Virus record (IMG/VR): IMGVR_UViG_3300006641_000002
Span: 1-60,638 of that record
Origin: a virus
Direction: 5' to 3' (one strand)
DNA: 60,638 nucleotides
The notes under the pieces are model-generated. The model did not search any database, was not told the origin of the DNA, and saw nothing but the letters and a program-made list of their open reading frames with translations. Positions 1,144 to 49,969 of the stretch are shown piece by piece. Made by a program: the position numbers and the translations under genes. Numbering within the stretch: the first letter of the stretch is position 1; each line of letters begins with the position of its first letter.

Positions 1144-2622
1144 TCAATCAAATTCGTACCAATGCCGCGGCTGCGACGGTTGCTCACGCTTTAGCGCAAC
1201 GTTGGCCTCGTGCAACACGCTATCGGGTGCAACTTCGTCGCGTTCTGATGGCTCAAGACCGCGCCACGCCATGTGATTCGCCACGAACATCAACCGCACG
1301 GTGCCCGTCGGCCCGCCTCGGTTTTTTGCGACGATGATTTCGTGCTCCTTTGCCTCCGATTTTTCGCCGTCTTCCTTGTCGACGCGATGAATGAACATCA
1401 CCACGTTCGCATCCTGCTCAATGGCGCCTGACTCGCGAAGGTCGCTAAGGCGTGGCCGTGCGGCTTTGCCCACGCGCTCCTCCACCGAACGATTAAGCTG
1501 CGCCAAGGCAAGCACCGCGCAATCAAGCTCTTTTGTGAACTTCTTGAGTCCACGCGACAGCCTTGCCACCTCGTTCTCACGCGTCTCGCTTTTGCGCCGG
1601 TCGGGCGAGTCGATAAGTTGCAGGTAGTCGACCACGACGAGGGCCAGTTCGCCGCCGCTCCGCTCAATGTCCGCGCGTATCTTCCGCGCCGCCGCTCGCA
1701 TTCCGTAAAGCGACACGTTCGGATCGTCGCACACGTGCATGGTAACGGGCATCATCTCATTGACGGCGTCCGTCAAACTGCCGACGTCATCGCCACGTAG
1801 GCGAACCTTTTGCACGCGCATGTGGTCAACGTTGCCAATGGTGCTCATCGCACGCGTAGCAAGCTCCTCGCTGGTCATCTCGAGCGAAAAGAAAATGACG
1901 TGCTTTGGCTTGCTGGACGCCTCGCGCCTTCTCGCCACGTGCATGGCAAAGTTGAGTGCAAGCGCCGTCTTGCCAACGCCAGGGCGCGCGGCAAGCACGT
2001 AAAATCGCCCCCGCTGAAAGCCCACGATGTACTCGTCGAGGTCAGCGAATCCCGTTGGCTCAACATCGCTGCTTTCTCCGTTTTGTTGGCGCAAAATCAT
2101 CGACTGCAAAGCCCGCTTCGCCACGTCACCAATGCGTTCGCACGTTCGCTCTTTTGCGTTCGTCTGCTGGCAATCGAAAATCGTTTGCGCCGACCTATCG
2201 AGGTAGCTTGCAACATCTTCGGCGCCTCCCTCGAGAGCGTATCCCTCGGCGGCGATGCGATGCCCCGCCGTGATGGCCGTGCGTAGCACCCATTTCGTAT
2301 CAACGATTTTGGCGTAGCCCTCGGCGTTGCCAAGATGTTGTGCGGCGCCAAGAATGTCGGTCAGGTACGACGACCCGCCGACTTGCGCCAGCCGCCCCGT
2401 TGTCCGTAGACGCGCAAGTGTTGTGACGATGTCGACGGGCGCCCCCTCGCGATGAAGCGAAAGCATGGCCTCGAACACGCGACGATGCGCTTCGGAGTAG
2501 AATTTCTCGGGCGCTAAGAGCGACCCAAACGCGTCGATTTGCTGGCCTGTTCCCTCGATTAGAATCGCCGAAAGCACGGCGGCCTCCGCGTCGAGGTCAT
2601 GCGGTGGAATAGCGTCAACCAT
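1144..2622 (-). CDS. dnaB: Replicative DNA helicase, DnaB family
   Basis: 492 residues, a full-length hexameric replicative helicase. The N-terminal helical domain (about 1-110) opens with the typical LDAEAAVLSAIL-type segment. The RecA-like ATPase domain carries Walker A RPGVGKT (213-219), the FFSLEM segment, the Walker B strand LVVVDYLQLI and a C-terminal FIHR motif. It unwinds the fork after loading at the origin. The initiator gene immediately upstream overlaps it by eight bases, so the two are co-translated; that protein is the likely loader or initiator. Confidence 0.97.
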   Translation of the reverse strand: MVDAIPPHDLDAEAAVLSAILIEGTGQQIDAFGSLLAPEKFYSEAHRRVFEAMLSLHREGAPVDIVTTLARLRTTGRLAQVGGSSYLTDILGAAQHLGNAEGYAKIVDTKWVLRTAITAGHRIAAEGYALEGGAEDVASYLDRSAQTIFDCQQTNAKERTCERIGDVAKRALQSMILRQQNGESSDVEPTGFADLDEYIVGFQRGRFYVLAARPGVGKTALALNFAMHVARRREASSKPKHVIFFSLEMTSEELATRAMSTIGNVDHMRVQKVRLRGDDVGSLTDAVNEMMPVTMHVCDDPNVSLYGMRAAARKIRADIERSGGELALVVVDYLQLIDSPDRRKSETRENEVARLSRGLKKFTKELDCAVLALAQLNRSVEERVGKAARPRLSDLRESGAIEQDANVVMFIHRVDKEDGEKSEAKEHEIIVAKNRGGPTGTVRLMFVANHMAWRGLEPSERDEVAPDSVLHEANVALKREQPSQPRHWYEFD

Positions 2623-4177
2623 GAGAAGCCTCCGCCGTCACCTCAGGCGACGAGGACGCCGCCACCCGATGCACGCCGCTGCCATGACGTTCCGTGTACG
2701 CCGCCTCCGCCCGCGCCAATCGGTCGCGCGCTACCTCGATGGTGATGCCTTGAAAGAACGGACTGTCGCTACCACGGGACACGTGCTCGAACATCGTTTG
2801 CGCCGCCTCAAGCTCTTCGGTCAGCGGGTCGAAACGTGGCGTTTTTGCCGCCTCCGCCCGCGCCTTTTTCGCCTTGGCTTCCGCGATAATTTTTCGCACT
2901 CCGCCGTCATTGGCCCACTTCAAAAAACCTCGCGGGTCGTAGCCGTGGCGAAAGCGCGTAGCGTTTTCTTCATCCGCCCGAACCTGGCGAGCAAACGCCT
3001 CCGCCGCACCCCTAAGCCACTCGACGCGACCCCCCAAACCGCCACGAGGCCCATGCTCGTCGAGGGCGTCATCGAGAACCGCCACCTGCTCGCGCGGCAC
3101 CACGTAACGGCCACCAGTGACCGCCACGATGGCCTCCTGGTACGCCGCCGCCACGAACGATGCCTCGAACCGCCGTACCGCCTTCGGTCGCTCATGGCGA
3201 CATAGCGATTGCGGGGCCGGCAAGGGGGTTTCCGGCGCCCCATTCTCTTGAGACGAGGCGTTGCCCCAACCGGAAGGCGTCCCGATGTTCTTGCCCCCGT
3301 CTCGTGTCACGGCGAGGCCTGTCACGTTGTTGGCCTCCGGCAACGTTGCCGCTTCACCAGATTGGTCAGCTAGGTCGTGCGTGTGTTGCGCGTCTGCGAC
3401 GACTGCCGGCGTAGCCTCGACCGGCGAACCCTCGATGGTCCCGGATGCCCCCAGGGGGGCAAGGGGGGTTTTCTCTCTCTTCTCTTTCTTCTCTTTCTTC
3501 TCTTTCTTAACGTCACTCGGCGTCACGCGTGACGTCACGCTTTCAATTCTCCGCGAAACACTTGTTTTCTCGTGACTTGATGAATCCGCGACATGGTCCC
3601 CGTCGCATGTCGCGACATGGTCGACATGCATGTCGCGACACGTGTCGTTTGGCATGTCGTGCATGTCGGTGACGGCGTGACGTAACGTGTCGCATGTCGC
3701 GACCATGTCGCGTGTCGCGACCATGTCGCGTGTCGCGACCATGTCGGTCACTCGCCGGCGTTCTCGATACCGTCGGCATCGGTCGGCGTTGCCGCTTCGG
3801 TCACCCGTGACCGGCGTTGTGACGTCACGATCTTCTTTCTGTCGCTCCCGGTATCGGCGTTGACGGTCTGCATGGTTGGACGGCGTTGCCTGACGGTCGA
3901 CGAAGGTGATGTCACGCACCACGCGGTTGACCTCGTCGAGCTCAATGACGTGAGCTTCGATAAGCGCATCCATTCCCTTCTCGACGACGTCAATCGGCAA
4001 GCCGAGCAACGTTGCAAGCATGGGCATGGGATTAGGACCGAGACGCAACTCGCCGTCATGGTCAAACCGGACCACCATCGTCAAAAAGACAATGGCGGCG
4101 TCACGCGACAAGGCCACAAGCCATTCCACATCGCGCTTGTAAAGTTTGATCCAACCTTCTCGCTTGTAGTCGATCAC
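2615..4177 (-). CDS. Replication initiator with winged-helix N-terminus and internal origin repeats
   Basis: 520 residues from a GTG overlapping the upstream stop (GTGA). The first ~100 residues resemble the winged-helix domain of phage initiators: a resident-helix segment, then a VRDITFVDRQ-type strand. The middle is low complexity: arginine-rich repeats, hexapeptide DMVATR repeats, then a lysine/glutamate run. A C-terminal helical domain (about 330-450) follows. Placement directly before dnaB and the DNA repeats inside the gene argue for an O-like initiator that binds its own coding sequence and recruits the helicase. The exact family is not identified. Confidence 0.75.
   Translation of the reverse strand: MIDYKREGWIKLYKRDVEWLVALSRDAAIVFLTMVVRFDHDGELRLGPNPMPMLATLLGLPIDVVEKGMDALIEAHVIELDEVNRVVRDITFVDRQATPSNHADRQRRYRERQKEDRDVTTPVTGDRSGNADRCRRYRERRRVTDMVATRDMVATRDMVATCDTLRHAVTDMHDMPNDTCRDMHVDHVATCDGDHVADSSSHEKTSVSRRIESVTSRVTPSDVKKEKKEKKEKREKTPLAPLGASGTIEGSPVEATPAVVADAQHTHDLADQSGEAATLPEANNVTGLAVTRDGGKNIGTPSGWGNASSQENGAPETPLPAPQSLCRHERPKAVRRFEASFVAAAYQEAIVAVTGGRYVVPREQVAVLDDALDEHGPRGGLGGRVEWLRGAAEAFARQVRADEENATRFRHGYDPRGFLKWANDGGVRKIIAEAKAKKARAEAAKTPRFDPLTEELEAAQTMFEHVSRGSDSPFFQGITIEVARDRLARAEAAYTERHGSGVHRVAASSSPEVTAEASHG
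3470..3515. other. Polypurine/polypyrimidine tract next to the iterons
   Basis: About 45 bp of almost pure pyrimidine on the plus strand (CTCTTTCTT-type repeats), purine on the coding strand, encoding the Lys/Glu run of the initiator. It is the most AT-rich stretch of this gene and lies about 80 bp from the nearest iteron. This matches the position of the DNA-unwinding purine-rich region of lambda ori. Confidence 0.4.
3592..3748. repeat. Iteron-like palindromic repeats, candidate replication origin
   Basis: Five copies of the core TGTCGCGAC(A/C) occur at 3608-3617, 3631-3640, 3695-3704, 3713-3722 and 3731-3740. The first is extended to a perfect 14-bp palindrome (3606-3619). The block 3704-3739 holds two perfect tandem 18-bp units. 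The repeats lie in the initiator's low-complexity linker, as the lambda origin lies inside gene O, with a purine-rich tract on the 3' side of the gene. Function is inferred from layout. Confidence 0.55.
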
Positions 4178-8572: not shown

Positions 8573-9082
8573 ATGGGGGAAAAGGCCGTGAAAACCATCA
8601 ACGAACGAGCCGCGTGGGCGTTGCGCTCCTGCGATCTGTCGGCTCGCGAGATAGCTAGGCGCATCGGAACCGACGCATCATGGGTGTCGCGCCTCACTGC
8701 GGGAGAGACCGGTGCCCCTGACCCTGTTTTTCTAGCGCGGTTTGCCAAGGAAACCGGCGTGAGCTTGATGTGGGTGATTCTTGGCGAAGGTTTGCCGAAG
8801 GCCACCGAGTCCGCGGAAATGGGACCGTTTGACGTAGGCGCCGCCGCCGCCATGCTTGACGGCGCAACGGTGGAGGACGTGGACAACGCTCGTGCCAATA
8901 TGGGCAACAAGGTTGGAATCACCTGGCAACAAGCACGCGACGAAGTGACCTATCACCGCATCGCGCGTGAGCATGGCGTTACCGATGTGCCGTTTGACGA
9001 ATCGGTCATCGATGCGGTTAAAACTTTGACCTCGCACCTACAACGCGCTGGCCTTGCCGACCCAAAGAAACGCCGCCGCTAG
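8573..9082 (+). CDS. XRE-family transcriptional regulator, candidate repressor
   Basis: 169 residues. The helix-turn-helix spans about 22-45 (LSAREIARRIGTDASWVSRL) and is followed by a FAKETGVSLMWVILGEG segment typical of phage repressors. The C-terminal half is helical and ends in a basic tail; no LexA-like Ser/Lys self-cleavage domain is evident. SD AGGAAGG supports the ATG. Divergent from the Cro-like gene, it probably governs both the minus operon and the plus-strand replication operon. Confidence 0.75.
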   Translation: MGEKAVKTINERAAWALRSCDLSAREIARRIGTDASWVSRLTAGETGAPDPVFLARFAKETGVSLMWVILGEGLPKATESAEMGPFDVGAAAAMLDGATVEDVDNARANMGNKVGITWQQARDEVTYHRIAREHGVTDVPFDESVIDAVKTLTSHLQRAGLADPKKRRR

Positions 9083-9473: not shown

Positions 9474-10079
9474 GTGGATTGCGACGATTGCGAGGGGACG
9501 GGGTTTCTCACCGGTGAACACGGTTGGGTCAACGAACCATGCCGAGGCGTCGGCAAACCAGGCGACTGTCATCCGCGCGAGACACGAAAACCGTGCGAGC
9601 GGTGCCAAGGCTCAGGGCGCGTTAGTCGATTGCAGTCGCTTGTTGATGAGCTGCAATCCTCCCCCGATGTTGTGATGGCGCATCGTTTTCTGGCGTCGTT
9701 GTATGCCGCCGGCCTTGCGTTGGACGAAGGGGTGCTGAACGAGCTCGCGCTTCGCAATCTCGACGCGCTTGTGATCTTTGCGTCGTGCGAGGCAAACGCG
9801 CGCGTAGCTTTCAAGATTTGCGAATGCCGTCAAATAGTCGCGAACGCGTACCGCGTGGCTGTGGCCTCCCTGCTTGATGATCGCGCCCCGCCGCTACGTT
9901 CTCTCCTCCGTGAGCTCGATACCCAATGGGCTCACCTGAGCCTCAGCGCCGACGCCGCCGCCGACGAATACCGGCGAGCCATGACGGCACTTGACGGTGC
10001 CCAGATGGATCTCGCTGCCCACGCGGCGCATGCACGCTTTGCAAACATGGCCGTCTACGACGGATTTCAGGAGGCATGA
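9474..10079 (+). CDS. DnaJ-type zinc-finger (CxxCxGxG) protein
   Basis: 201 residues from GTG, preceded by GGGAG. Two CxxCxGxG motifs (CDDCEGTG at 3-10 and CERCQGSG at about 42-49) make one DnaJ-like zinc site. The rest is a helical region of unknown function. It heads the plus-strand operon and overlaps the next gene by four bases. The zinc module alone does not imply chaperone activity; nucleic-acid or protein binding is possible. Confidence 0.7.
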   Translation: MDCDDCEGTGFLTGEHGWVNEPCRGVGKPGDCHPRETRKPCERCQGSGRVSRLQSLVDELQSSPDVVMAHRFLASLYAAGLALDEGVLNELALRNLDALVIFASCEANARVAFKICECRQIVANAYRVAVASLLDDRAPPLRSLLRELDTQWAHLSLSADAAADEYRRAMTALDGAQMDLAAHAAHARFANMAVYDGFQEA

Positions 10080-10990
10080 TGTTTACCAAGGCAACCAAGA
10101 AGGAATCGAAGCTACGCCTCTCCCTCGTCGGCCCATCCGGCAGTGGCAAGACATACACAGCCCTTCGCATCGCTCATCGCCTGGCCCAAGGCAACAAAGT
10201 GGCCGTGCTCGATTCGGAGCGAGGAAGCGCCAGCAAGTACGCCGACAAGTTTCCTTTCGATGTTTGCGAGCCGGAGGATTTCAGCCCGCAAACCTACGTG
10301 AAAATCCTCAAAGCCGCAGAGGCCGCCGGCTACTCGGTGCTTGTCATCGATAGCCTTTCTCACGAGTGGATGGGGCGCGGCGGCGCCCTCGAGATGGTGG
10401 ACAAAATTTCCGCTTCGTCGCGAGCCGGCAACTCTTACACCGCATGGCGAAGCGTCACGCCCGCGCACAACGCGCTGATCGACGCCATCGTTAGTTGCAA
10501 GATGCACGTGATTGCCACGTTGCGCGCCAAGCAGGAGTATGTGCTTGAAGAAGATGAACGTGGGAAAAAGACGCCGCGAAAGATTGGCATGGGTGCCGTC
10601 CAGCGTGACGGCGTGGAGTACGAATTTGACGTCGTTGCCGAACTTGACCCCACCAATCGCTTTGTGGTCACCAAGACCCGATGCAGCGCGCTTCAAGGTT
10701 ACGTCGCTACGCCGTGCACCGAAGACTTTGCTGACACGCTTCTCGGCTGGCTTGACGGCGAGAAGGTCGACGATGTGCCAAAGGTTGCGGCCCATCTATC
10801 TGATGAAGCTGTGTCCGTCGCCGACGAACTTCTGGGGCGAATTTATGCCGAGGATGCGAACCTTGCCGAACTTCGCAAGGTCATCAAGGACGCAATCGAC
10901 TCCGGCACCGTGAGCGACGACGATCGCAAGAGACTGCAATTTGCCTACTCAGAGCGCGCCAAAGCGACGCGAAAGGACGCGCATGCGTAG
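10076..10990 (+). CDS. P-loop ATPase, Sak4/AAA_24-like recombination protein
   Basis: 304 residues. Walker A GPSGSGKT (about 19-26), a VAVLDSERGS strand, and Walker B-like VLVIDSLSHEW (about 90-100). This is the pattern of phage nucleotide-binding proteins that include the RecA-like single-strand annealing ATPase Sak4. It lies beside a PD-(D/E)XK nuclease and an SSB-like gene, a typical phage recombination cassette. A helicase-loader or other AAA role cannot be excluded. Confidence 0.7.
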   Translation: MMFTKATKKESKLRLSLVGPSGSGKTYTALRIAHRLAQGNKVAVLDSERGSASKYADKFPFDVCEPEDFSPQTYVKILKAAEAAGYSVLVIDSLSHEWMGRGGALEMVDKISASSRAGNSYTAWRSVTPAHNALIDAIVSCKMHVIATLRAKQEYVLEEDERGKKTPRKIGMGAVQRDGVEYEFDVVAELDPTNRFVVTKTRCSALQGYVATPCTEDFADTLLGWLDGEKVDDVPKVAAHLSDEAVSVADELLGRIYAEDANLAELRKVIKDAIDSGTVSDDDRKRLQFAYSERAKATRKDAHA

Positions 10991-12122
10991 GCCCATCATC
11001 ACGGCGTCAGCGCTTGAGCGCGTTCTCCATTGCCCAGCAAGCGCGGTACTGCCGACCGTTAGCACCACATCAAAAGCCGCTGAACGTGGCTCCGTGGTCC
11101 ACGAGTATTTGGCTCGTGTGATTGGCGGGTCGACGGCTGATGACGCTTTGGTGCTCGTGCCAGAGGAGCACCGTGCGCGATGCAGCCGCATTCCGCTTTC
11201 GCGGCTGTTGACGAAGCTAAACCACGCCAAGGCAGAGCCGGCGTACGCGCTACACGCGCCGACGGGTAAAGCCTCGCGCCTCGGCTACAACATCGGGCGC
11301 AACTACGACGTTGATGATGCGCACGTTGCTGGTTCGACAGATGTCGAAGCCGTCGATGACAGGTACGAAGCCTATGGGCGCCCAATCGTCATTGACTGGA
11401 AGACGGGGCAAGACGTGACGCCCGCGCGCGATAACGCGCAAATCAAATTCGCCGCTGCATGCGCTATGCAAATGCACGATGAGTATGAAGTCGAGGGGCG
11501 TATCGTCTACCTGTTTGACGATGGGGGCATCCGCGTCGATTCGGCCGTGTTCACGGCGCTAGAACTCGACGCATTCGTCGACGACGTGCACACGGCACAC
11601 GCGCAAACGCTTGCAGCGCGCGAACTACTTGCATCCGGCTCCGTGCCGAACGTCAAGATGGGCGACCATTGCCGCTATTGCCCCGCCATGGCGTCGTGCC
11701 CGGCGCACGTTGGGCTTGCTCGTCAGCTTACGGGCACCATCGATGACCTAAAGGCCAAGGTTGCCACGTTGACGCCTCACGAGGCCGGTGACGTGTACAC
11801 GCGCCTGAAAGTCATCAAGCGTCACGTCGAGGTGATTGACGACGGCCTAAAGGCACTTGCGCGCCAAGCTCCCATTCCGTTGCCTCAAGGCAAAGAGTTA
11901 CGGCAATTTACATCCGAACGCCGCAAAGTGGACGTGGATGCGCTGGCAAGCATTGCCGCCGAACGTGGCGCCACTGACGAGGAACTGGCCACCGCCAAAG
12001 TGTTTGACGCTGACCGCGTCGCAGAGCTTGCACGCCGCCTCGGAGCAACCGAGGACGAAGTCAACGCGTGCACTGACGTCATCACGGTGATGACTATTCG
12101 AGAGACAAAAGTGAAGCGATAA
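10983..12122 (+). CDS. PD-(D/E)XK nuclease, RecB/Cas4-like
   Basis: 379 residues from ATG 10983, which overlaps the upstream stop; a longer frame to 10941 is a less likely start. An N-terminal ITASALERVLHCPAS segment carries one cysteine. The nuclease core has RGSVVHEYL, an aspartate near 'GSTDVEAVDD', then VIDWKTG (D-x-K signature). The cysteine cluster CRYCPAMASC supplies the other ligands expected of an Fe-S nuclease. It probably resects DNA ends for the neighbouring annealing ATPase. Confidence 0.75.
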   Translation: MRRPIITASALERVLHCPASAVLPTVSTTSKAAERGSVVHEYLARVIGGSTADDALVLVPEEHRARCSRIPLSRLLTKLNHAKAEPAYALHAPTGKASRLGYNIGRNYDVDDAHVAGSTDVEAVDDRYEAYGRPIVIDWKTGQDVTPARDNAQIKFAAACAMQMHDEYEVEGRIVYLFDDGGIRVDSAVFTALELDAFVDDVHTAHAQTLAARELLASGSVPNVKMGDHCRYCPAMASCPAHVGLARQLTGTIDDLKAKVATLTPHEAGDVYTRLKVIKRHVEVIDDGLKALARQAPIPLPQGKELRQFTSERRKVDVDALASIAAERGATDEELATAKVFDADRVAELARRLGATEDEVNACTDVITVMTIRETKVKR

Positions 12123-12144
12123 AACAATGTAGGAGGGTAAAGCC

Positions 12145-12684
12145 ATGAATGGCTGGAATGAGATGATGACAATGCTGTCGACGTCGACAAAACCTTCAAA
12201 GAAGGAAGGTGGTCTGTATCTAAGGTTGGAAAAGGATGGAGACCGTGCAGACGTTGCATTTGTGGGAAACGATGTGAAGGCTGCATACGTGGTTTATGAA
12301 GAAAACAAATTTGTACCTTTTGTTGAAGGCAAGCACGCCGATAAAGACAAGCGCTTTAGGGTATACGCAAACGTCTATTCGTTTGAGGCTGGCGAAACCA
12401 AGCTGTTTGGAGCATCCCTACAGTTTGCGGAAGAGCTAAAAAGGGCAAACGATGCAGGTAATTTGTGGGGAGGCCTTTGGCGCTTGCAGCGACGTGGCGA
12501 AGGGCCACGAACGATCTACACGTTGGAACACCTCAGAAGCCTAACGCCAACGGAAGGGGCTAAAGCTCAAAGTGCTTCCATTTTTGATCTCAATAGTGCC
12601 GTTGTTCAAAAGTATGAGCGGGTAAAGCCAACTGCCAAGCGTCAAGATACTTATGAAAATGACATCGGCGACATTCCATTTTGA
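12145..12684 (+). CDS. Probable single-stranded-DNA-binding protein with SSB-type tip
   Basis: 179 residues. The N-terminal part (20-125) is beta-rich and could be an OB fold. The C-terminus ends in NDIGDIPF, matching the acidic D-D-I-P-F tip by which bacterial SSB recruits partners. The GGAGGG ribosome site precedes ATG. The gene is visibly richer in A and T codons than its neighbours, suggesting separate origin. Its place between nuclease and clamp genes fits a replication SSB; the fold itself is inferred. Confidence 0.55.
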   Translation: MNGWNEMMTMLSTSTKPSKKEGGLYLRLEKDGDRADVAFVGNDVKAAYVVYEENKFVPFVEGKHADKDKRFRVYANVYSFEAGETKLFGASLQFAEELKRANDAGNLWGGLWRLQRRGEGPRTIYTLEHLRSLTPTEGAKAQSASIFDLNSAVVQKYERVKPTAKRQDTYENDIGDIPF

Positions 12685-12686
12685 CC

Positions 12687-13796
12687 ATGAAGTTCGTTAT
12701 TTCAAAAAAAGAACTGGTCGAGTCGCTCAATCGCATGAACGGCGTGGCTGAGCCCAAGGCTCATCACGCTCCTTTTCGCATGGTCGTCTTTGCCGTTGAT
12801 GGGCCGTCTACGGTTCGTGTCGGTGCAGAAAACGGCGTGGTGTCTCTCGCGTGCACCCTCACCGCTGACGTTGCCGACAAGGGCGCGATTGCCTTGCCAT
12901 GCAAGGACGTCCTTGACCGCGTGAAGGCCATGCCCGATGGGATGGTGTCTATCGAAACCAAAGACACAAGCGTCATCCTACGCAGCGTCGCAAGCAGCCG
13001 TCGCTACACGCTTGCCGGCATGTCAGCCGACGATGCACCACGTGGGCAAGTTGACGACGAACTTCCGTGGCACGCGCTCACGGCTTCCACATGGCGCACG
13101 CTGACGCGCCGAACCCGCTACGCCATGTCAGACGACGATACGCGCGCACACCTGCATGCCACGCTCCTCGAGTGGCAAGGCTCGCGGATTCGCTTCGTTG
13201 CGACCGACGGCCATCGTTTATCGATTTCCGACGCGGACACGGGGGACGCACAAGGGTCGTTCGCCACCTTGCTCCCGAAGGTCGCGGTTGATCGCATGCA
13301 TGCCATCGTTAGCGCGCTTGGAAGCGACGACGCGGTGCAGGTAGCAAGCACATCGCAGACGTTTTTGGCGAAGGTAGGAAACTACACGCTCACAAGCCGA
13401 ATCACCGACGGAAAGTTTCCACCTTACGAGCAGGTCGTACCCAAACCATCGGAGGCGTTGACGGTGCCGCGCACGATGCTTCTAGATGCCGTTCGTGCCG
13501 TGCTCGTCGCGGCGCACGAAAAGACAAAAGGCATCAGGCTCATCGTCGAAAACAACCTAGTACACGTCGCATCGCAAACGCCCGAAGGAGACGGCGCCGA
13601 TGACGTGACGTGCGACTACGACGGCGAAAAGGCAACGATCGGCCTTTCGGGTGAGTATCTGAGCGACTGCCTTGAGTCACTTGATGATGACGTTGTTCGC
13701 CTTGGCTTTATGGCGTCAAATCCACTTTCGCCAGTCTTGGTGTCACCCAACGAAGGCGCATCTTTTCAATTCGTCATAATGCCGATGCGCATCTGA
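12687..13796 (+). CDS. dnaN: DNA polymerase III beta subunit (sliding clamp)
   Basis: 369 residues from ATG 12687 (an in-frame TTG lies six bases earlier, overlapping the previous stop). Three clamp domains are recognisable: the FVATDGHRLS motif in domain II, FPPYEQVVP at the domain II/III join, and the C-terminal VIMPMRI close to the universal end of DnaN. It would encircle DNA and tether host polymerase III at the phage fork. A bacterial-type clamp is uncommon in phages of this size. Confidence 0.93.
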   Translation: MKFVISKKELVESLNRMNGVAEPKAHHAPFRMVVFAVDGPSTVRVGAENGVVSLACTLTADVADKGAIALPCKDVLDRVKAMPDGMVSIETKDTSVILRSVASSRRYTLAGMSADDAPRGQVDDELPWHALTASTWRTLTRRTRYAMSDDDTRAHLHATLLEWQGSRIRFVATDGHRLSISDADTGDAQGSFATLLPKVAVDRMHAIVSALGSDDAVQVASTSQTFLAKVGNYTLTSRITDGKFPPYEQVVPKPSEALTVPRTMLLDAVRAVLVAAHEKTKGIRLIVENNLVHVASQTPEGDGADDVTCDYDGEKATIGLSGEYLSDCLESLDDDVVRLGFMASNPLSPVLVSPNEGASFQFVIMPMRI

Positions 13797-13919: not shown

Positions 13920-14354
13920 GTGGCGCGAACGCGGAACGTAACTCATCCCATCTACGCCGACCTGCCGGCGCACACTCGGAGAGGCAAGACAATCTCCCGA
14001 CGCGACATGGAACGCGCCAGGGCGCTGCCGTCGCCCTACCCCGACGTGGAAAGGCCGGTGACGCGCGCAGATTGCGAGTACGGGCCTCGGCCTTGCCCGT
14101 GGGTGTCGTGCCGTCACCACCTTTATTTAGACGTGACCTTGAGCGGCGGTTTGCACATCAACCATTACGGGCTCGACGTTGACGAGGTCCCAGCAACGTG
14201 CGCACTTGACCTTACGAAGCGCGAAGGAATGACCATCGACGAGGTGGGTGATGTCATGGGCATCACGAGGGAGCGTGCGAGGCAAATCGAACACCAAGGC
14301 ATTCGCAAGATTAGGCATCTACCGTTGCTTCGTGGCATCGCAAAAGCCGGCTAG
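13920..14354 (+). CDS. Sigma-region-4-like DNA-binding protein
   Basis: 144 residues from GTG. The C-terminal 45 residues read as a sigma-70 region 4.2 helix-turn-helix (MTIDEVGDVMGITRERARQI). Upstream, a conserved block with RPCPWVSCRHHLYLDV and CALDL recalls a family of small DNA-binding proteins I associate with Myxococcota genomes. As the last gene of the early plus operon it is a candidate activator of the minus-strand late operon; that role is inference. Confidence 0.7.
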   Translation: MARTRNVTHPIYADLPAHTRRGKTISRRDMERARALPSPYPDVERPVTRADCEYGPRPCPWVSCRHHLYLDVTLSGGLHINHYGLDVDEVPATCALDLTKREGMTIDEVGDVMGITRERARQIEHQGIRKIRHLPLLRGIAKAG

Positions 14355-49261: not shown

Positions 49262-49969
49262 ATGAGCAACACGTCATCCGCCGCCGCCGCCAAGACCGTC
49301 GCCATCTATTGCCGCGTGTCGACCGACGAGCAGGCCGCCAGCGGCCTAGGTCTCGAGGCGCAAGAAGCGCGCTGCCGCGCGTTCGTCGTCGCCGCCGGCC
49401 TTGAGGGCACCGTCCGCGTGTTCGTGGACGCGGGCATCTCGGGCAGCACCACCGACCGCCCTGCTCTCACCGAGCTCCGTGCCGCGGTAGCACGCAAGGA
49501 AGTGGCCGCCGTGGTGGTGGCGAAAATCGACCGCCTGACCCGCCGACTTGCGGATTTGCTCGAGCTGACGGAAGCGTTTGCCGCCAAGGGCGTAGCGTTC
49601 CTATCGGCGAGCGAGCAAGTCAACACCTCGACCGCTGCCGGGCGCATGATGCTCTCCTTGCTTGGCACCTTCGCCGAATTTGAGCGCGATACGATTTGCG
49701 AGCGCACCAAGAGCGCCGTCGCCGCCAAGCGCGCGCGTGGCGTGGGCCACGGGTTCGAGCGCCTCGGCGAGCGCCACGGGGCCGATGGGCGCATCGAGAC
49801 GGTGGAGGAGGAGACCGCCGCGGTGGAGATGATGGTCCGCCGCCGCAGCGAGGGCGCCTCACTCCGCGCCATTGCCGCCGAATTGACGGCCGCCGGCTAC
49901 CCGACCAAGCGCGGTGGCGCGTGGCGCGCGTGCACCGTCGACGTCGTGTTGCGCCGCGCTGCTCACTGA
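49262..49969 (+). CDS. Small serine recombinase (resolvase/invertase family)
   Basis: 235 residues. Catalytic serine in IYCRVSTDEQ (about residue 21); other signature residues in VVVAKIDRLTRR and SLLGTFAEFERD. The C-terminal region (SLRAIAAELTAAGYPTKRGG) is a helix-turn-helix DNA-binding end. Too short for a large serine integrase, so it should be a resolvase or invertase acting on the adjacent dyad site. The phage already has a tyrosine integrase. Confidence 0.88.
   Translation: MSNTSSAAAAKTVAIYCRVSTDEQAASGLGLEAQEARCRAFVVAAGLEGTVRVFVDAGISGSTTDRPALTELRAAVARKEVAAVVVAKIDRLTRRLADLLELTEAFAAKGVAFLSASEQVNTSTAAGRMMLSLLGTFAEFERDTICERTKSAVAAKRARGVGHGFERLGERHGADGRIETVEEETAAVEMMVRRRSEGASLRAIAAELTAAGYPTKRGGAWRACTVDVVLRRAAH

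What the first reader, a model, noticed from the sequence alone, without database searches (positions are those of the whole stretch)
12145..13796. Phage-encoded sliding clamp beside an SSB-like protein with the D-I-P-F tip
A full bacterial-type beta clamp is unusual in a 60-kb phage that encodes no recognisable polymerase. The protein before it ends in NDIGDIPF, like SSB. Together with DnaB and an initiator, this suggests the phage remodels the host polymerase III holoenzyme instead of replacing it. The SSB-like gene has visibly different codon use.
Basis: partly seen in the sequence, partly recalled or inferred. Interest (0 to 1): 0.5.

Follow-up and report, generated by a model that had tools for sequence, protein, structure and literature searches.

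The report
Phage sliding clamp plus ssDNA-binding protein
A temperate phage with no recognisable DNA polymerase of its own carries its own copy of the bacterial sliding clamp next to a divergent single-strand-DNA-binding protein whose tail looks like that of bacterial SSB, so it probably copies its DNA by pairing these parts and its own recombination enzymes with the host's polymerase.

Summary
The sequence facts hold: 12687-13796 is a complete three-domain beta clamp, and 12145-12684 a 179-aa protein ending NDIGDIPF with the most deviant codon use of 54 window genes. A clamp without a polymerase is not rare: 49 further clamp-bearing viral records show no family A, B or C polymerase, and Rhizobium phage 16-3 has a functionally similar module. 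The 179-aa protein fits no Pfam family but is a distant relative (E 6e-7, mostly its C-terminal half) of SSBs of Stanwilliamsviridae-type phages. All 45 relatives examined end in tryptophan; 48 of 48 such records encode DnaE and none a clamp. The window protein instead ends in a bacterial-type DIPF tip and sits with a Sak4-like ATPase and a RecB-type exonuclease. In phage HK620 the SSB tip recruits Sak4 (published). Best reading: a recombination-coupled replication module whose SSB tip serves the phage annealase, and perhaps host tip-binders, while the phage clamp tethers host Pol III. 'Remodels host Pol III' is partly supported: reliance on the host polymerase is likely, the tip's target is open. 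That the tip is an exchangeable address label is testable but unproven.

The parts
12145..12684 (+). SSB-like protein, 179 aa, distant relative of Stanwilliamsviridae-type phage SSBs; GC 0.47
   Evidence: HMM of 45 such SSBs E 6.1e-7 among 17,212 ORFs, next unrelated 0.21; HMM of 5 phage SSBs E 3.2e-6; hhalign E 4.2e-6
12658..12681 (+). codons of the SSB-type C-terminal tip NDIGDIPF
   Evidence: direct reading
12131..12136 (+). Shine-Dalgarno-like AGGAGG of the SSB-like gene
   Evidence: direct reading
12687..13796 (+). bacterial-type beta sliding clamp, 369 aa, all three domains
   Evidence: best DnaN among 49 bacterial genomes searched is 37% identical
10076..10990 (+). Sak4-like RecA-core ATPase (AAA_24 5.9e-25, phrog_1366 4.7e-82, phrog_124 'Sak4-like' 2.3e-10)
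10941..12122 (+). RecB/Cas4-type exonuclease (DUF2800, PDDEXK_1, phrog_69); start codon uncertain
13920..14354 (+). sigma-70 region 4 protein, last gene of the module
   Evidence: PF04545 5.4e-11
9474..10079 (+). protein of unknown function with a weak, sub-cut-off DnaJ zinc-motif match, upstream in the same run of genes
1144..2622 (-). DnaB replicative helicase
2615..4177 (-). putative initiator or helicase loader (DnaD-like, weak)
   Evidence: phrog_186 E 3.9e-4; no Pfam family over cut-off

Best explanation
The two genes are the distal part of a recombination-coupled replication operon (Sak4-like ATPase, RecB-type exonuclease, SSB, beta clamp, sigma region 4 protein). The exonuclease and helicase expose ssDNA; the 179-aa SSB coats it; its DIPF tip recruits the phage Sak4-like annealase and probably also host tip-binding proteins; annealed 3' ends serve as primers on which the host clamp loader places the phage clamp, and the clamp tethers host Pol III because the phage has no detectable polymerase. 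Shown here: gene order, domains, homologies, the tip, no family A/B/C polymerase found. Inferred: ssDNA binding, co-transcription, every protein-protein contact, loading by the host loader, and use of host Pol III.
For: Gene order and domains. SSB homology. OB-like topology: AF2 with 39 sequences, mean pLDDT 55.9, best ten-residue blocks 79-83; Foldseek PDB list led by bacterial SSBs, best E only 0.066; VIA-align best Z 5.2, rows mostly SSB, PriB and gp32-type OB folds. PF-tip proteins beside this ATPase family: of 20 examined out of 39 such loci, 11 match Pfam SSB and 6 DUF669 (three of the 6 below cut-off). A functionally similar module in Rhizobium phages 16-3 and RHph_TM3_3_14B: Sak4-like ATPase, DUF669-type protein, clamp, Cas4/RecB exonuclease, sigma. 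Motifs TDGHRLS and MPMRI of the clamp are kept (their role in the protein-binding cleft is recalled). No family A/B/C polymerase in 50 of 50 clamp records. Precedents: HK620 SSB tip and Sak4 (PMC5928155, abstract, passages and section 7); SPP1 replication reconstituted with host PolC, DnaE and DnaN and either SsbA or SPP1 SSB gp36 (PMC6316719, passages).
Against: The SSB homology is remote (17-25% identity in A6); the significant match is the C-terminal half, the N-terminal block alone scores 4.3 bits. The fold matches are individually weak, none at Foldseek E <= 0.001 in the PDB, and the tool warns that Z under 8 may mean only a common arrangement. The exonuclease gene separates the ATPase gene from the SSB gene, unlike HK620. 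This ATPase subfamily rarely travels with a clamp: among its loci 0 of 95 viral and 1 of 79 bacterial stretches held a clamp, and 68 of 95 and 67 of 79 held no acidic PF tip within 5 kb; conversely no BLAST relative of the window ATPase lies in the 80 clamp loci, and the 16-3 ATPase is not found as its BLAST relative. No close homologue of the 179-aa protein was found in three viral scans, one genome scan and the phage and plasmid collections (one search returned only one remote Stanwilliamsviridae-type SSB). No interaction was tested.
Confidence: 0.55

Rival explanations
1. Host replisome takeover: the DIPF tip mainly docks the host Pol III clamp loader and primase, and the phage clamp replaces host DnaN at forks started by the phage initiator and DnaB; recombination is secondary.
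For: Tip of the bacterial SSB kind; no phage polymerase found; DnaB and a weak initiator match present; relatives that carry their own DnaE lack the PF tip.
Against: The genes sit with the Sak4-like ATPase and exonuclease, not with DnaB and the initiator, which are on the other strand about 8 kb away; the documented partner of such a tip in a Sak4 module is Sak4.
Confidence: 0.2
2. The clamp is a decoy or protection device: it competes for host clamp-binding proteins, or stands in when host DnaN is inhibited by a rival phage or a toxin.
For: Viral and bacterial clamps are intermixed on the tree, with at least 6 label changes forced by starred branches for viral contigs, as repeated captures of an add-on would give (direction of transfer is not shown by the tree); of 50 clamp records only 17 have a canonical SSB and 13 an AAA_24 ATPase over cut-off, so clamps often occur without this module.
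Against: Here the clamp directly follows the SSB gene within a DNA-metabolism gene cluster; its end branch is longer than that of its chromosomal neighbour (1.23 versus 0.58) but its conserved motifs are intact.
Confidence: 0.12
3. The 179-aa protein is not an SSB; its PF ending and resemblance to phage SSBs are coincidental and it is another small DNA-metabolism factor.
For: No Pfam family; best PHROG hit only E 0.028; tblastn hits no better than E 0.4; no Foldseek PDB match at E <= 0.001; PDB profile search empty.
Against: Two HMMs built without it place it far above all unrelated ORFs (the second family set was gathered from the first, so they are not independent); all 38 sub-threshold phage hits fall on Streptomyces phages, on SSB genes where annotated as such (mutually related, so about one event); position and tip match SSBs of related loci.
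Confidence: 0.1

Closest known systems
Phage beta clamps of PHROG 947 (Rhizobium phages 16-3 p081 and RHph_TM3_3_14B)
   Same: Full-length clamp in a phage of about 60 kb without a family A/B/C polymerase, in a cluster with a Sak4-like ATPase, a DUF669-type gene, a RecB/Cas4 exonuclease and a sigma factor
   Different: Window clamp is only 26-27% identical and groups with a Myxococcales DnaN, not with the 16-3 clade, at SH-aLRT 91, unstarred; the neighbouring genes are similar in kind, not close homologues; the DUF669-type protein there has no PF tip, while the helicase carries a DDEVPF ending
Stanwilliamsviridae-type phage SSBs (e.g. Streptomyces phage Wakanda gp55)
   Same: Collinear motifs and significant HMM match
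   Different: All 45 relatives examined end in W and have an extra internal segment (with cysteines in many); 48 of 48 records encode DnaE and 0 of 48 match the clamp N-terminal model
HK620 Sak4-SSB pair (PMC5928155)
   Same: Sak4-like ATPase with a nearby divergent SSB whose tip resembles DDDIPF
   Different: HK620 SSB is DUF669 and next to sak4; here no DUF669 match and an exonuclease gene lies between
SPP1 replication (PMC6316719, passages)
   Same: Phage initiator, helicase and SSB working with host polymerases
   Different: The reconstitution described uses the host clamp DnaN; this phage brings its own clamp

Membership tests
Bacterial-type beta sliding clamp (DnaN) | three clamp domains over curated cut-offs, full length | tested here: met
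   PF00712, PF02767, PF02768; DnaN structures, best E 5.4e-44, residues 1-369
Bacterial-type beta sliding clamp (DnaN) | conserved motifs of the protein-binding cleft and C-terminus (roles recalled) | tested here: met
   TDGHRLS and VIMPMRI align with chromosomal DnaN; the second Arg of FPDYRRV (Acinetobacter) is Gln here, as in the Myxococcales DnaN
Bacterial-type beta sliding clamp (DnaN) | ring formation, loading by a clamp loader | not testable with these tools
   needs biochemistry
Canonical bacterial SSB (PF00436) | match to the Pfam SSB model | tested here: not met
   0 families at E <= 1; no match in the record
Canonical bacterial SSB (PF00436) | acidic C-terminal tip ending in PF | tested here: met
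Canonical bacterial SSB (PF00436) | OB fold | tested here: inconclusive
   low-confidence model, OB-like topology, weak scores
Stanwilliamsviridae-type (W-tip) phage SSB | profile match to the family | tested here: met
   (E 3.2e-6 and 6.1e-7), mostly the C-terminal half
Stanwilliamsviridae-type (W-tip) phage SSB | C-terminal W | tested here: not met
   45 of 45 relatives examined end in W, window ends IPF
Stanwilliamsviridae-type (W-tip) phage SSB | gene travels with a phage DnaE | tested here: not met
   48 of 48 records; none in the window
DUF669 phage SSB (HK620 type) | Pfam PF05037 match | tested here: not met
Sak4-SSB recombination module | Sak4-like ATPase and SSB with acidic PF tip close together | tested here: met
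   AAA_24 5.9e-25, phrog_124 2.3e-10; about 1.2 kb apart, an exonuclease gene between
Sak4-SSB recombination module | tip-dependent recruitment of the annealase | not testable with these tools
   shown for HK620 (PMC5928155)

The most novel reading that the evidence does not exclude
The last residues of phage SSBs act as an exchangeable address label. SSBs of one family end in W where the phage brings its own DnaE; a gene of that stock, still compositionally foreign here (GC 0.47; 51 of the other 53 window genes are above 0.54 and the relatives' genes have a median of 0.44), was re-addressed with a host-type DIPF tip in a phage that brings a clamp and borrows the host polymerase. Many phages would then follow one of two complementary designs, own polymerase without a clamp or own clamp without a polymerase, each with a matching SSB tip; exceptions exist (Psychrobacillus phage Perkons has both a clamp and DnaE).
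Probability: 0.2. Interest if true: 0.6.

Novelty: new variant of a known kind. Interest (0 to 1): 0.42.

Why it matters
Clamp-bearing phages with no detectable polymerase recur in the viral collection, but the paper searches made here listed none that treats why. This locus offers a compact, testable set: swap the SSB tip (DIPF, W, none) and the clamp (phage, host) and see which polymerase and which annealase are recruited. It would show how a phage specifies whose replication enzymes it uses.

Tried and rejected
Tried without gain: single-sequence AF2 of the 179-aa protein (mean pLDDT 34.9); close-relative scans with the 179-aa protein and the clamp; a scan with the combined alignment A6, 600 stretches, no relative; PDB searches with the 179-aa protein by sequence and by profile; tblastn in plasmids (one chance hit inside a long Klebsiella ORF).

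Considered and rejected: canonical SSB or DUF669 membership (no Pfam match); host contamination as the source of the clamp (it lies between phage-type genes; contaminants do occur in the collections); one origin of all phage clamps (starred branches force at least 6 label changes for viral contigs and 7 for isolates; a quick tree, whose stars deserve less trust with long branches). A strict rule 'clamp means no polymerase' is rejected: among 14 isolate phages with clamps, Psychrobacillus phage Perkons has DnaE and Nodularia phage vB_NpeS-2AV2 a sub-cut-off PolA match; none has PolB.

Limits: the 49 clamp records tested for polymerases were picked from 80 as 30 kb or longer; 8 others of that length, several of them near-copies, were left out, and records may be fragments. 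The 48 W-tip records were picked from 80; the 45 W-tip proteins were picked from the same 80 with near-duplicates and a cut gene dropped; the two sets overlap but are not identical. Only the N-terminal clamp model was searched in the 48. W-tip relatives share descent, so 48 of 48 is not 48 independent events. Of the 39 loci with a PF tip near the ATPase, 20 were classified. Host: the best DnaN is from a Myxococcales MAG, but the 49 genomes searched were chosen because they hold the ATPase, so this is only a hint.

Full report
What is there. The window is one whole IMG/VR virus record. On the + strand runs a set of genes that reads as an operon (co-transcription inferred): HTH protein 8573-9082, unknown 9474-10079, Sak4-like AAA_24 ATPase 10076-10990, RecB/Cas4-type exonuclease ending at 12122, the 179-aa protein 12145-12684, the beta clamp 12687-13796 and a sigma-70 region 4 protein 13920-14354. 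DnaB and a weak DnaD-like match are on the other strand, with integrase, tail sheath, portal and terminase elsewhere: by these genes a temperate contractile-tailed phage.

The observation. The clamp is complete. The 179-aa protein ends NDIGDIPF, the only PF or PW ending among 54 window genes, and it is the compositional outlier of the window: GC 0.47, GC3 0.46, codon z -3.73, the most extreme of 54. No family A, B or C polymerase is detectable in the record.

How unusual. Not very. Of 49 of these records, picked for length from 80, none has PF07733, PF00476 or PF00136 at E <= 0.001 (records may be fragments); 17 have a canonical SSB and 12 an AAA_24 ATPase over cut-off, not counting the window. 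Among 14 isolate phages with clamps one has DnaE and one a sub-cut-off PolA match. Rhizobium phages 16-3 and RHph_TM3_3_14B have a functionally similar cluster of Sak4-like ATPase, DUF669-type gene, clamp, exonuclease and sigma. The likeness is in kind: the window's ATPase and exonuclease have no BLAST relative in the 80 clamp loci, and of the loci found with the window's ATPase 0 of 95 viral and 1 of 79 bacterial stretches hold a clamp. The exact combination here is therefore uncommon even though each part is known.

What the 179-aa protein is. Pfam gives nothing and PHROGs one weak SSB hit, E 0.028. tblastn of all phage records at E up to 10 returns 38 records, all Streptomyces phages, on SSB or DNA-binding genes where they are so annotated, none significant alone; the five I fetched of these are Stanwilliamsviridae. 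Profiles do better: hhalign against five of these SSBs, E 4.2e-6, probability 87; against nine, E 5.5e-6; an HMM of the five finds the window protein at E 3.2e-6 among 17,212 ORFs, next unrelated 1.9; an HMM of 45 viral-contig SSBs finds it at 6.1e-7, next unrelated 0.21. The match is mainly in residues 96-158, with a weak collinear N-terminal block. AF2 with the family alignment gives mean pLDDT 55.9 with a better core. PDB fold matches are weak (Foldseek best E 0.066, VIA best Z 5.2, and Z under 8 can be a common arrangement), but the lists are led by bacterial SSBs, PriB and related OB folds, with T4 gp32 among the rows; four viral models reach E 1e-3, two of them named DNA-binding.

The tail. 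All 45 family members examined end in W. Of 48 records of this family, 48 encode DnaE and 0 match the clamp N-terminal model. The window protein lacks an internal segment of its relatives, cysteine-bearing in many, and ends DIPF. Its GC fits the family (median 0.44, range 0.38-0.57) better than its own genome. In loci around the same ATPase family, 27 of 95 viral and 12 of 79 bacterial loci have a protein with an acidic PF tip within 5 kb, the others none (a few of these are the ATPase itself or short ORFs); of 20 examined, 11 match Pfam SSB, 6 DUF669 (three below cut-off) and 3 nothing.

What it probably does. Hutinet and co-workers report that sak4 usually neighbours a distant ssb gene, up to 80% of sak4 genes, and that the last six residues of the HK620 SSB (NDYPPF) are essential for Sak4 binding to SSB-covered ssDNA (PMC5928155, abstract, passages and section 7). 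The simplest reading is therefore a recombination-coupled replication module whose SSB tip serves the phage ATPase, with the phage clamp handing primed ends to host Pol III. A role of the tip at the host loader or primase is possible and not exclusive.

Where the clamp comes from. The best sequence among 49 bacterial genomes is a DnaN of a Myxococcales MAG (L158's genome), 37% identical, E 6.6e-55, against 30% and 1.5e-45 for the next; its flanking ORFs read as dnaA and recF, so it is chromosomal (by reading). The tree groups the window with it and two viral contigs at SH-aLRT 91 and 86, no starred branch, on a long end branch. Viral and bacterial clamps are intermixed on the tree, which suggests repeated transfers; the tree does not show their direction.

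Literature. Four searches aimed at phage-encoded sliding clamps gave nothing on the question (listings only), nor did two broader ones (listings), one on SSB tips (listing) or one on W-ending phage SSBs (listing). A cyanopodovirus paper discusses borrowing host Pol III; the words clamp and beta subunit do not occur in its main text (PMC9860041, passages). The AP-16-3 paper's main text does not hold the words clamp, replication or polymerase III (PMC10460002, find only).

Verdict. A coherent module, a new variant of a known kind; the clamp-without-polymerase part is ordinary, the compositionally foreign SSB with a different tip from all its examined relatives is the interesting part.

Noticed in passing
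L071:9563-11311, L086:9853-11709 and 18 other loci; L028:14366-16096 (16-3 p088): The SF2 helicase homologous to 16-3 p088 ends in an SSB-like acidic tip (e.g. ELLDDEIPF, WELDDEVPF) in 20 of the 26 clamp loci with a p088 hit (some of the other 6 are cut), and in 16-3, TM3 and NV1.1.1 themselves, while their DUF669-type proteins have no PF tip.
   Followed up: partly
L048:12545-13978 and L049:12229-13656: DnaB-type helicases of two clamp-bearing viral contigs end in DVDQADVPF and NGNREEIPF, SSB-like tips on a replicative helicase.
   Followed up: partly
window left part to 12122, against L002: Another viral contig (47,417 bases, 7,904 of them held) is 100% identical over the 10 window genes that hit it and ends inside the exonuclease gene.
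   Followed up: no
window 49262-49969 and 54133-56910: Compositional islands near the right end: a recombinase/invertase gene at GC 0.70 (z +2.78), a gene at GC 0.505 (z -2.34) and a transposase.
   Followed up: no
L039:6980-11136: A viral contig whose clamp groups with the window's also has a terminase (38%) and a sigma region 4 protein (43%) like the window's, but no PF-tip protein in the stretch held and no AAA_24 ATPase in its whole record (G004).
   Followed up: partly
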